From positions 1 to 38,590 of the forward strand of contig NZ_JAIULG010000045.1 of NCBI RefSeq assembly GCF_020169415.1: a DNA stretch of 38,590 nucleotides. Direction: 5' to 3'. A model generated the notes under the pieces. The model made no database searches. It worked only from the letters and a program-made list of their open reading frames with translations, and had not been told where the DNA came from. Below are positions 22,726 through 25,099 of this stretch, in pieces; positions within the stretch are counted from its first letter, which is position 1; every line of letters starts with the position of its first letter. A program made the translations under genes and the position numbers. The DNA comes from Tsukamurella sp. M9C. Its GTDB lineage: Bacteria > Actinomycetota > Actinomycetes > Mycobacteriales > Mycobacteriaceae.

Positions 22726-23055
22726 GATGAACTGGCACCGGACGAGGCGGACCGCCTTTTCCACGCCCTCGCGGATCGCACCCGGCGCGACATCGTCGTC
22801 CGGGTGATCGAGCGGGAGTGCTCCGTCTCGGAGCTCGCCCGCGGCTACGAGATGAGCTTCGCGGCGGTGCAGAAACACGTGGCGGTGCTGGAGAAGGCCG
22901 GCCTGGTCGTCAAGACCCGGCGGGGGCGCGAGGCCCTGGTCGGCCCGGACGTCGACACCATCGCGCGCGGCGCCCGCCTGCTGCGCGGATACGAGGACCT
23001 GTGGCGGGGAAGAGTCGCGCGCATGGACGCGCTGCTCGACCTCCCGAACGATTGA
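22717..23055 (+). CDS. ArsR/SdpR-family regulator
   Basis: 112 residues from ATG 22717. The winged helix-turn-helix covers about 8-85 (DRLFHALADRTRRDIVVRVI, CSVSELARGYEMSFAAVQKH, LEKAGLVVKTRRGRE). There is no metal-binding Cys pair; the lone Cys in RECSVSEL is not enough for an ArsR metal site. The longer frame from 22627 has a basic, unlikely N-terminus. It is followed 11 bases later by an SRPBCC gene, the usual partner in this subfamily. A palindrome over its own start suggests autorepression. Confidence 0.85.
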   Translation: MVVDELAPDEADRLFHALADRTRRDIVVRVIERECSVSELARGYEMSFAAVQKHVAVLEKAGLVVKTRRGREALVGPDVDTIARGARLLRGYEDLWRGRVARMDALLDLPND

Positions 23056-23066
23056 GGAGTTCCGTC

Positions 23067-23546
23067 ATGCCCGTGCTCACCACCGGCGCCGATCGCGAGG
23101 CGCTCACCTTCACCCTCGAGGCGGAGTTCGCAGCCTCCCCGGAGCGCGTCTGGCAGCTCTGGGAGGACCCCCGGCTGCTGGAGAAGTGGTGGGGCCCGCC
23201 CGGATGGCCCGCCACCTTCGTCCGCCACGAGCTGCGGCCCGGCGGTGAGTCCCGCTACTACATGACCGGCCCGGACGGCACGAAGGCCGGCGGCTGGTTC
23301 TCGACGGTGTCCACCGACGCCCCGTCGACCTTCACCTTCCGCGACGGCTTCGCCGGCGAGGACGGCGAGCCCCTCGACCCCGAGGATCACTCCACGACCA
23401 CCGTCGTCATCACGCCCACCGGCGACGTGACGCGCATGACCCTCACCGCGACGCACCGTTCGCTCGAGCAGCTCGAGCAGGTCCTCGAGATGGGCATGGA
23501 GGAGGGCATGACCCAGGCGATGAACCAGATCGACGCCCTGCTCTGA
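23067..23546 (+). CDS. SRPBCC/AHSA1-like protein
   Basis: 159 residues, GAGGAG seven bases before the ATG. The AHSA1 pattern is clear: FTLEAEFAASPERVWQLWED, LLEKWWGPPGWPATF, the central GG-x-SRYYMTGPDG strand pair, and a C-terminal helix (LEQVLEMGMEEGMTQAMNQID). Such proteins bind hydrophobic ligands and are usually encoded with an ArsR regulator, as here. No enzymatic residues are evident. The pair probably forms one transcript from the promoter at 22703. Confidence 0.85.
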   Translation: MPVLTTGADREALTFTLEAEFAASPERVWQLWEDPRLLEKWWGPPGWPATFVRHELRPGGESRYYMTGPDGTKAGGWFSTVSTDAPSTFTFRDGFAGEDGEPLDPEDHSTTTVVITPTGDVTRMTLTATHRSLEQLEQVLEMGMEEGMTQAMNQIDALL

Positions 23547-23565
23547 GCGTGTGCCGGAAATCCCG

Positions 23566-23596
23566 TTGACGGCGCCCCGTCGTCCCGGGATAGGCT
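23566..23596 (+). promoter_or_regulatory. Promoter of the MFS leader RNA
   Basis: -35 TTGACG (23566-23571), 19-bp spacer, -10 TAGGCT (23591-23596). Seven bases later is ATG 23604, so transcription should start at or next to that A. The spacer is longer than ideal. Confidence 0.5.
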
Positions 23597-23603
23597 GCCG
23601 CGC

Positions 23604-23615
23604 ATGAACTCCTGA
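23604..23615 (+). CDS. Three-codon upstream ORF (M-N-S-stop)
   Basis: ATG AAC TCC TGA, seven bases after the -10 box, so probably leaderless. Codons 2-3 and the stop form the 5' half of P1, so a ribosome on them would open P1 and free AGGAG. Its translation is inferred from position only. Confidence 0.35.
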   Translation: MNS

Positions 23616-23688
23616 CACGTGTCGACGCCCTGCGCGGCGTCGACGGATGCCCCCATCCGTGCCTCCCGTGTCAGGAGTCTCTCCTTTT
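23604..23688 (+). ncRNA. Structured cis-regulatory leader of the MFS gene
   Basis: Three stems in a junction. P1: ACTCCTGACACG (23608-23619) with CGTGTCAGGAGT (23667-23678), 12 bp perfect. P2: GTCGACGCC (23621-23629) with GGCGTCGAC (23636-23644). P3: GGATG (23645-23649) with CATCC (23654-23658). The 3' side of P1 contains AGGAG, the ribosome site of the TTG start at 23687. An alternative hairpin AGGAG-TCT-CTCCT followed by TTT (23673-23688) uses the same AGGAG. The structure therefore seems built to hide or expose translation initiation. Confidence 0.6.
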
Positions 23689-25030
23689 GCGTACCTCCAC
23701 GCCCATGTCCACGTCCGTCTCCGCCGACCGGTGGGCCGCGCTCGGCGCTCTCGCCCTCGGCTACGCCATGATCCTGGTGGACGCGACGGCGCTATCCGTC
23801 GTCACCGTCCGCCTCATGGACGGCCTGCACACCGACGTCCGCTCGGTGCTGTGGGTCTCGTCCGCGTACCTGCTCGCCTTCGCCGTCCCGATGCTGCTGT
23901 GCGGCCGCCTCGGTGACCGGTTCGGGCACCGCCGCATGTACCTACTCGGCCTCGCCGTCTTCCTCCTCGCGTCGCTCGCCTGCGGCTTCGCGCCGACCCT
24001 CGGCGTGCTGGTGGCGATGCGCGTCGTGCAGGGGATCGGCGCGGCGCTGATGACGCCGCAGGTCATGGCGATCATCACCCTCGTCTTCCCGATCGAGACC
24101 CGCGGTGCGGCCCTCGGCGTCTGGGGCTCCGTCACCGGCGTCGCGACGCTGGCGGGCCCGCTCCTCGGTGGCCTCCTCGCCGACGTCGCGAGCTGGCGCT
24201 GGGTGTTCTGGCTCAACGTCCCCGTGGGCGTCGCGGGGATCGTCCTTACCCTGCGGTTCGTCCCGCGGTCGACGGCGGACGCCCGCCGGCTCGATATTCC
24301 TGGGGCCGTCCTGTCCGCAGCCGCCGTGTTCGGGCTGATCCTCGGTCTGCAGGAGCTCGGGCGACCCGGCGCGATGCCGTGGATCGCGCTCGCAGCGGGC
24401 GCCGCAGCGACTCTCGCCTTCCTCTCCCGCCAGCGCCGACGGAGCGAGGACGCGCTCGTCCCGCTGCGGCTCTTCCGCATTCGCAGCTTCGCCGCGTCGT
24501 CGGGCGTCAACCTGCTCGCCGGTGCGTGGGCGACCGCCTACGTCTTCCCGGCGACGCTCTACGCGCAGGCCCGGCACGGCGTCTCGCCGGGCGGCGCCGC
24601 GCTGCTGCTGGCGCCGACGGCCCTGGTCTCGGCCCTGCTCGCGCCGCGGGTCGGGCGGTCGCTGCGCCGGCGCGACCCGCGCGGAGTCCTGTCGGCCGGT
24701 CTCGCGGTGTGCGCCCTCGGCCTGGCGCTGTTCGTGGCCGTCCTCGCCGCGGCGCTGCCGGCCGGGTGGCTGACGGTGCCGGCCGCGGTGGTCGGCGTGG
24801 GCAGCGCGATGATGTGGGGCCCGATGTCGCTGCTCGCGACCTCCGAGCTGCCGCGCGACCTGGTGGGCGCGGGCGCCGGCGTCTTCAACACGACGCGGCA
24901 GTTGGGCTCGGCGTTCGGTGCGGCCGCGGTCGCCGCGGTGCTCGCCCACGGCGCGCTGCCCGGAGCGATGGTGTTCGCGGCGGTCGTCTGCCTGGCCGCC
25001 CTCGCCGCCTCCGCCGCGGTGCGCTCGTGA
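23687..25030 (+). CDS. MFS drug-efflux-type transporter (DHA2-like)
   Basis: 447 residues from TTG 23687, nine bases after AGGAG; ATG 23705 would shorten it by six residues. About 12-14 hydrophobic segments are present. MFS motif A appears as GRLGDRFGHRR after TM2 and motif C-like GPLLGGLLAD in TM5, typical of proton-driven antiporters of the EmrB/DHA2 kind. Substrate not predictable. Expression is probably set by the leader RNA just upstream. Its TGA lies in the left arm of element C and it converges on the crtI-like gene. Confidence 0.85.
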   Translation: MRTSTPMSTSVSADRWAALGALALGYAMILVDATALSVVTVRLMDGLHTDVRSVLWVSSAYLLAFAVPMLLCGRLGDRFGHRRMYLLGLAVFLLASLACGFAPTLGVLVAMRVVQGIGAALMTPQVMAIITLVFPIETRGAALGVWGSVTGVATLAGPLLGGLLADVASWRWVFWLNVPVGVAGIVLTLRFVPRSTADARRLDIPGAVLSAAAVFGLILGLQELGRPGAMPWIALAAGAAATLAFLSRQRRRSEDALVPLRLFRIRSFAASSGVNLLAGAWATAYVFPATLYAQARHGVSPGGAALLLAPTALVSALLAPRVGRSLRRRDPRGVLSAGLAVCALGLALFVAVLAAALPAGWLTVPAAVVGVGSAMMWGPMSLLATSELPRDLVGAGAGVFNTTRQLGSAFGAAAVAAVLAHGALPGAMVFAAVVCLAALAASAAVRS

Positions 25031-25099
25031 AACCGGCCGAATACCGCGGCACGAGGCCGAATCTTCCCTCGTGACCGAGGAATCGGCCGGTTTCACGAG
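25024..25099. repeat. 17-bp perfect inverted repeat holding both stop codons (element C)
   Basis: Arms 25024-25040 and 25083-25099 are exact complements. Inside is a second perfect stem, CACGAGG (25050-25056) with CCTCGTG (25067-25073). The TGA of the MFS gene (25028-25030) and the TGA of the convergent crtI-like gene (25093-25095) sit in mirrored positions in the arms. GGAATCGGCCGGTT is shared exactly with element A. Likely bidirectional terminator of a repeat family. Confidence 0.65.

What the first reader, a model, noticed from the sequence alone, without database searches (positions are those of the whole stretch)
23566..23690. MFS exporter behind a leaderless three-codon uORF that forms half of an SD-hiding stem
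The sequence shows a promoter seven bases before ATG AAC TCC TGA, whose bases begin a perfect 12-bp stem with the region holding the exporter's AGGAG; two more stems close a three-way junction, and a second hairpin (AGGAG-TCT-CTCCT then TTT) competes for the same AGGAG. A ribosome paused on M-N-S-stop, or a ligand bound to the junction, would switch exporter translation. Ribosome-binding drugs as inducers are inference. I do not recognise this as a named riboswitch class.
Basis: partly seen in the sequence, partly recalled or inferred. Interest (0 to 1): 0.82.

Follow-up and report, generated by a model that had tools for sequence, protein, structure and literature searches.

The report
Leaderless mini-ORF hiding exporter start
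Upstream of a likely drug-export pump gene in a Tsukamurella bacterium, the messenger RNA appears to begin directly with a three-codon mini-gene whose letters also clamp shut the pump's ribosome-landing site, so a ribosome parked on the mini-gene should switch the pump on.

Summary
In a Tsukamurella genome a DHA2/EmrB-type MFS exporter (23687-25030, TTG start) has a promoter ending 7 nt before ATG-AAC-TCC-TGA (23604). A perfect 12-bp helix (P1) joins this uORF to the exporter's Shine-Dalgarno (SD) AGGAG (23673-23677); P2 and P3 complete a three-way junction. The leader folds far better than shuffles (z -7.8); 0 of 98 other AGGAG sites in the window has an 11-bp partner at this range.

Promoter spacing, ATG-NNN-TC[C/T]-TGA, P1 and SD spacing recur in the two orthologs found (3 of 16 genus genomes), although four-fold sites differ by 33-37%. 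Covariation is weak. Rfam and a covariance model gave no credible relative elsewhere.

Best reading: a translation attenuator. A 70S ribosome held on the 5'-terminal AUG covers the anti-SD strand and frees the SD. It works like toiL-topAI of E. coli, with a leaderless three-codon uORF. No transcript, translation or induction data exist; the start site is inferred. A ligand riboswitch is unsupported; the second hairpin is weak and not a terminator.

The parts
23566..23571 (+). -35 element TTGACG (TTGA kept in 3 of 3 species)
   Evidence: starts 38 nt before the ATG in all three; spacer to -10 is 19 nt in all three
23591..23596 (+). -10 element TAGGCT (TAAGCT in G137)
   Evidence: ends 7 nt before the ATG in 3 of 3 species
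23604..23615 (+). uORF ATG-AAC-TCC-TGA (M-N-S-stop), predicted 5'-terminal (leaderless)
   Evidence: ATG-NNN-TC[C/T]-TGA in 3 of 3 (MNS, MIS, MIS); transcription start inferred only
23608..23619 (+). P1 5' strand (anti-SD strand, overlaps the uORF)
   Evidence: two wobble-preserving changes in relatives, and the outermost A-U pair lost in both orthologs
23621..23629 (+). P2 5' strand
23636..23644 (+). P2 3' strand
   Evidence: two pairs with a change on both sides; one pair lost in G125, one in G137
23645..23658 (+). P3 hairpin (5 bp, 4-nt loop)
   Evidence: one pair lost in G125
23667..23678 (+). P1 3' strand, holds the SD; 0 of 12 positions differ in all three pairwise comparisons
23673..23677 (+). 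Shine-Dalgarno AGGAG of the exporter
   Evidence: 9, 8 and 9 nt before TTG in G000, G137, G125
23673..23685 (+). P4: weak alternative hairpin AGGAG-TCT-CTCCT
   Evidence: -4.1 kcal/mol; forms in the model when nt 1-17 are blocked
23687..25030 (+). DHA2/EmrB-type MFS exporter, 447 aa, TTG start (ATG 23705 is not conserved)

Best explanation
The leader is a ribosome-operated translation attenuator. Transcription starts at or one base before the ATG, so the mRNA begins with a three-codon leaderless uORF (inferred). Once the leader is complete, P1 pairs uORF nt 5-16 with the exporter's SD and keeps it off (structure predicted from sequence and energy; effect inferred). When a 70S ribosome is held on the 5' AUG or on the next codons, for instance by a drug that traps initiating ribosomes, it covers nt 1 to about 16-18. 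That takes in the whole anti-SD strand up to the base of P2, so P1 cannot form. The SD is then held only by the weak hairpin P4, which a second ribosome can melt, and the exporter is made (inferred). The peptide probably matters little (codon 2 is Asn or Ile); what matters is occupancy of the 5' end.
For: A perfect 12-bp P1 and a leader energy far below shuffles. Promoter elements at fixed distances from the ATG in 3 of 3 species although the spacer between them has diverged. AUG and UGA kept in 3 of 3, with the second codon varying and the third changing synonymously. P1 3' strand 0 of 12 different while four-fold sites differ at 101/306, 107/296 and 106/286. Modelled cost of opening the SD falls from 13.5, 9.7 and 9.5 to 7.3, 4.8 and 5.5 kcal/mol when nt 1-17 are blocked. 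In E. coli, drug-stalled start-codon ribosomes have their downstream edge at +16 to +18 (PMC12121999 section 9); P1's 5' strand ends at +16. About 25% of mRNAs are leaderless in two mycobacteria, where a 5' AUG seems to suffice for translation (PMC9094748 passages). The gene is an efflux-type MFS (TIGR00711, 231.5 bits against a cut-off of 230.2; best solved match named antiseptic resistance protein). Of 30 DHA2-type loci examined in this genome only this one has the arrangement; of 83 homologous loci scanned, only the four Tsukamurella ones plus one rejected match.
Against: No transcript, ribosome or induction data. Only three sequences: covariation is not significant (107 of 500 shuffles reach the score, 330 of 500 the number of further pair types) and P1 has no double change. 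With nt 1-17 blocked the SD is still mostly paired in the model: mean unpaired probability 0.03, 0.16 and 0.07, so release depends on a ribosome melting P4. The model does not single out 17 nt: blocking only 9 nt already gives 5.5, 4.8 and 5.3 kcal/mol. In Mtb, footprints at leaderless starts were spread about 25-35 nt downstream, not at +15 (PMC9094748 passage). The UGA and Ser codons lie inside P1 and could be kept for pairing alone. The -35 to -10 spacer of 19 nt is long (recalled norm about 17). The element is known in three species only.
Confidence: 0.57

Rival explanations
1. Static damping: P1 simply lowers exporter translation. The ATG at the 5' end is a by-product of a purine start site plus an anti-SD sequence (CTCCTGA contains a stop), and nothing is sensed.
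For: Ser and stop codons are forced by pairing with GGAG and TCA, and I see no stalling motif in M-N/I-S. P1 changes are only wobble-type.
Against: The AUG itself lies outside the 12-bp P1 and is kept in 3 of 3, at a fixed 7 nt from the -10 box, while bases between the two changed.
Confidence: 0.27
2. Riboswitch: a small molecule, perhaps an exporter substrate, binds the three-way junction and toggles P1.
For: A compact three-way junction with a well-kept J31 (1, 1 and 2 differences in 8 positions) and an SD-sequestering P1.
Against: No Rfam match at gathering score in the window or up to E 10 around the leader. No credible relative beyond three congeners in 401 family and 394 class genomes, searched with filters that lose weak matches. 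P2 and P3 each lose a pair in G125. J12 is 1 nt and J23 is 0 nt, leaving little room for an aptamer (sequence). A riboswitch gives no reason for a 5'-terminal AUG.
Confidence: 0.07
3. DNA-level or transcript-stability element: the long inverted repeat is an operator for a repressor, or a 5' hairpin protecting the mRNA.
For: The repeat abuts the promoter; a CCGGNAA block 50 nt before the ATG is also kept.
Against: The pairing strand coincides with the SD and its spacing. None of the window proteins that matched a family is a regulator; 6 of the 10 frames matched nothing, and not every ORF was tested. P1's 5' strand changes by wobbles, which keep RNA pairing but break DNA symmetry.
Confidence: 0.09

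Closest known systems
toiL-topAI upstream region of E. coli (Baniulyte and Wade 2025, PMC12121999; abstract and sections 8, 9, 13, 14 read)
   Same: uORF whose body pairs with the downstream SD; a ribosome stalled at the uORF start codon frees the SD; tetracycline and retapamulin act there.
   Different: toiL is longer and has its own SD (not leaderless), controls a toxin-antitoxin operon, and has experimental proof.
tetQ attenuator of Bacteroides CTnDOT (Wang et al. 2005; paper not held; seen only as cited in PMC12121999 section 14 and in a table of PMC5418344)
   Same: Very short uORF (cited as four codons) with translational control of a resistance gene.
   Different: Ribosome-protection gene in Bacteroides; leadered or leaderless state not known to me.
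Polycysteine leaderless short ORFs of mycobacteria (Canestrari et al. 2020; paper not held; seen as cited in passages of PMC9031893 and PMC13236596)
   Same: Leaderless short uORF in a related genus, acting as an attenuator of downstream genes.
   Different: Senses cysteine through contiguous Cys codons; here there are three codons, no Cys, and an exporter.
5'-terminal uAUGs of E. coli mRNAs (Beck et al. 2016, PMC4965119; abstract and section 15 read)
   Same: AUG at the 5' end upstream of an SD-led gene; for ptrB the uAUG aids 30S binding at the downstream start, apparently independently of uORF translation.
   Different: Removing the uAUG lowered or raised expression depending on the gene; the parts I read describe no SD-hiding helix made by the uORF and no drug exporter.

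Membership tests
Ribosome-mediated translation attenuators | Short ORF upstream on the same transcript | tested here: met
   ATG-NNN-TC[C/T]-TGA in 3 of 3 species, (promoter-based; transcript not measured)
Ribosome-mediated translation attenuators | Downstream SD sequestered by a stable helix | tested here: met
   (prediction)
Ribosome-mediated translation attenuators | A ribosome on the uORF excludes the sequestering helix | tested here: met
   geometry only: P1 5' strand nt 5-16 lies under a ribosome at the AUG (edge +16 to +18 in E. coli); SD opening cost falls by 4.0-6.2 kcal/mol
Ribosome-mediated translation attenuators | Alternative fold leaves the SD free | tested here: inconclusive
   weak P4 still pairs the SD in the model
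Ribosome-mediated translation attenuators | Drug- or starvation-dependent stalling on the uORF | not testable with these tools
   needs ribosome profiling, toeprinting or reporters
Leaderless short ORFs of Mycobacteriales | -10 element placed so that the start codon is at the 5' end | tested here: met
   7 nt from TANNNT to ATG in 3 of 3
Leaderless short ORFs of Mycobacteriales | Mapped transcription start at the start codon | not testable with these tools
   no RNA data held
Polycysteine leaderless attenuators | Contiguous Cys codons in the uORF | tested here: not met
   uORFs are MNS, MIS, MIS
Riboswitch (any Rfam class) | Match to a known class | tested here: not met
   0 matches
Riboswitch (new class) | Conserved aptamer core in diverse relatives | tested here: not met
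   three congeneric species only, (strict filters, sampled genomes)
Intrinsic terminator / transcription attenuator | Stable G+C hairpin followed by a conserved U-run | tested here: not met
   P4 is -4.1 kcal/mol; the run after its arm is TTT, T and TT in G000, G137, G125

The most novel reading that the evidence does not exclude
A minimal 70S-occupancy sensor: the 5'-terminal AUG is the sensing site itself. Any 70S ribosome trapped on a leaderless start codon, whatever the peptide, covers the anti-SD strand and turns on a multidrug exporter. This would be a peptide-independent attenuator read by the leaderless initiation pathway, responding to start-trapping drugs or to a rise in free 70S ribosomes.
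Probability: 0.3. Interest if true: 0.75.

Novelty: new variant of a known kind. Interest (0 to 1): 0.52.

Why it matters
About a quarter of mRNAs are leaderless in two mycobacteria, and hundreds of leaderless short ORFs have been mapped in Mtb (PMC9094748 passages), most without a described function as far as I know. A case in which such an ORF is reduced to three codons and its letters double as the lock on a drug exporter would give these ORFs a concrete, testable role. It would also offer a simple reporter for drugs that trap initiating ribosomes on leaderless mRNA.

Tried and rejected
Exact-architecture pattern (ATGNNCTCCTGAC...GTCAGGAG) in 298 genomes of the order: 1 match, the window's own; by its letters the pattern could not have found the two orthologs. 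Looser pattern in the own genome: 30 matches against 43 for the reversed control; 0 of the 30 has a TANNNT box 5-9 nt before the ATG. The window's own element falls one base outside that pattern's gap range, so it is not among the 30.

Covariance model R1: 37 of 401 family genomes matched at E <= 0.05, 40 rows. Three rows are the real leaders (E <= 4e-32). The 27 others that became loci (L090-L116) show, by eye, no uORF-plus-SD arrangement; 10 further rows were not inspected. L108 lies over the start of an MFS-like gene by my reading, but across its coding sequence. In 394 class genomes two further matches (E 2e-4 and 9e-4) lie opposite coding-like frames. Both searches used Infernal's stricter filters, which lose weak matches.

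Homolog scan: the first version used a wrong gene start for some loci. The repeat covers 83 of 84 loci (L083 dropped, upstream not held), with starts extrapolated for matches that begin inside the protein. It finds four Tsukamurella loci (two of them the same genome) and L036 (Reinekea), a 9-bp helix with 2 G-C pairs whose predicted fold leaves the SD free, rejected as chance. Own genome: 30 of 32 DHA2-type matches examined, 1 with the arrangement.

Plasmid collection: 24 records, all under 60% identity; their leaders were not examined. PMC11264731 (passages) and PMC10367133 (abstract) gave nothing decisive. The inducer cannot be named from sequence.

Corrected steps: one search printed minus-strand loci unreversed and one search used L003 unreversed (superseded); one motif search missed L003 and printed an empty fold; one search used wrong bounds for L003 (replaced); one search's real-sequence control included the element's own reverse strand (replaced).

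Full report
What is there. The window lies in a Tsukamurella genome: a handle of the same genus, G125, has a contig of the same length (252905) as the T. pseudospumae record found by protein search, and that record holds the same leader. The gene at 23687-25030 encodes a 447-residue MFS protein of the DHA2/EmrB type (TIGR00711, 231.5 bits against a cut-off of 230.2; PF07690). Its best solved matches are named antiseptic resistance protein, EfpA and EmrB. Its start is TTG 23687: the start and its 8-9-nt spacing from AGGAG are kept in both orthologs, whereas ATG 23705 is not.

Leader anatomy. TTGACG (23566), 19 nt, TAGGCT (23591), 7 nt, then ATG AAC TCC TGA (23604-23615). Leader nt 5-16 pair perfectly with nt 64-75, which hold AGGAG (P1). 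P2 (nt 18-26 with 33-41) and P3 (nt 42-46 with 51-55) lie between, with J12 of 1 nt, J23 of 0 and J31 of 8. The 83-nt leader folds at -44.0 kcal/mol, z -7.83, 0 of 200 shuffles as stable. An 11-bp or longer helix at comparable range was found at 0 of 98 other AGGAG sites in the window. A 12-bp helix arose in 1 of 5000 shuffles.

Relatives. Orthologs at 85% and 83% identity exist in 2 further genomes of 16 in the genus, the own one included; the other family hits listed are 42-49% identical. In both orthologs the -35 box is 38 nt and the -10 box 13 nt before the ATG, the uORF reads M-I-S-stop, and the SD and TTG are in place. The 3' strand of P1 has 0 of 12 differences in all three comparisons; four-fold degenerate sites of the gene differ at 101 of 306, 107 of 296 and 106 of 286. 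The 5' strand changes at two pairs, each time to or from a G-U wobble that keeps the pair, and the outermost A-U pair is lost in both orthologs. P2 has two pairs changed on both sides, one pair lost in G125 and one in G137; P3 loses one pair in G125. With three sequences this is no statistical proof of structure: 107 of 500 shuffles reach the covariation score and 330 of 500 the number of further pair types. Sliding the partner by 1-3 columns drops paired cells from 96% to at most 51%, but a structure derived from these sequences favours itself in that control.

Distribution. Rfam gave no match at gathering score in the window or up to E 10 around the leader. The covariance model found only the three Tsukamurella leaders in 401 family genomes, besides weak matches without the arrangement where inspected (27 of 37 further rows), and no credible one outside in 394 class genomes. 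A mechanical detector (-10 box, RTG 5-9 nt on, SD-sequestering helix) finds it in no other DHA2-type locus of this genome (30 of 32 matches examined). Among 83 of 84 homolog loci it finds the four Tsukamurella loci plus one weak chance case.

How it most likely works. Shown: sequence, predicted fold, conservation of spacing. Inferred: everything about transcription and translation. If transcription starts at the ATG, a 70S ribosome can bind it directly. In E. coli a ribosome stalled at a start codon ends at +16 to +18 (PMC12121999 section 9); P1's 5' strand ends at +16 and P2 begins at +18. With nt 1-17 blocked, P1 is lost and P2 stays in all three modelled folds; P3 is redrawn in G000 and G125. 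Modelled opening cost of the SD falls from 13.5 to 7.3 (G000), 9.7 to 4.8 (G137) and 9.5 to 5.5 kcal/mol (G125). The model does not single out 17 nt: with only 9 nt blocked the costs are already 5.5, 4.8 and 5.3. Nor does the cost fall to zero, because the SD then folds into P4 (AGGAG with CTCCT-like letters just before the start codon). P4 can be drawn in all three species, but with a G-U pair in each ortholog; it is weak in G000 (-4.1 kcal/mol, z -1.12), and pyrimidine-rich spacers make such hairpins easily. It may be a second brake or nothing. It is not a terminator.

Caution about stalling. In Mtb, footprints on leaderless start codons were spread about 25-35 nt downstream rather than at +15 (PMC9094748 passage), so the footprint of a leaderless initiation complex in this order is uncertain. 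A longer footprint would also open P1, and part of P2. Which drug, if any, acts is unknown; start-trapping drugs are the natural guess because a three-codon ORF leaves little nascent peptide to be read.

Comparison. It works like toiL-topAI, where tetracycline or retapamulin at the uORF start frees the SD (PMC12121999), and like very short-uORF control of tetracycline resistance (Wang et al. 2005, as cited there; not read). It also recalls leaderless cysteine attenuators (Canestrari et al. 2020, as cited in PMC9031893 and PMC13236596; not read) and E. coli 5'-uAUGs (PMC4965119). I saw no report of a leaderless uORF controlling a drug exporter in the rows listed. Several of those lists were cut, and the library holds only open-licence papers, so this is not proof of absence. 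I rate it a new variant of a known kind.

Surroundings. The upstream neighbour (22818-23546) is an AHSA1-like protein. In the orthologs a different coding-like sequence lies upstream, while conservation resumes about 50 nt before the ATG (by eye). Downstream is a phytoene-desaturase-like gene on the minus strand; a gene that looks alike lies there in T. pseudospumae by my reading of its translation. None of the window proteins that matched a family is a regulator, but 6 of 10 frames matched nothing and not every ORF was tested.

Noticed in passing
window 25024-25099: Just after the exporter's stop lies a near-perfect palindrome (GTGAAACCGGCCGAAT...ATCGGCCGGTTTCAC; -53.9 kcal/mol, z -8.9) that is repeated: 10 matches on 7 contigs of this genome, three contigs matching on both strands, and a similar one after the ortholog in G137. 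It looks like a dispersed palindromic repeat family, possibly serving as a two-way terminator.
   Followed up: partly
window 23554-23560 (50 to 44 nt before the ATG): A CCGG[A/T]AA block is kept in all three species although the sequence between the -35 and -10 boxes is not; a possible activator site or upstream promoter element.
   Followed up: no
own genome, TIGR00711 search: 32 matches to the DHA2 efflux model at E <= 1e-20, 12 over the curated cut-off: a large exporter complement, of which only the window's gene has this leader among 30 examined.
   Followed up: partly
L036 2927-3010: In Reinekea blandensis an MFS homolog also has a -10-like box, a three-codon ATG ORF and a hairpin before its start, but the predicted fold leaves the SD free; taken as chance.
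   Followed up: yes
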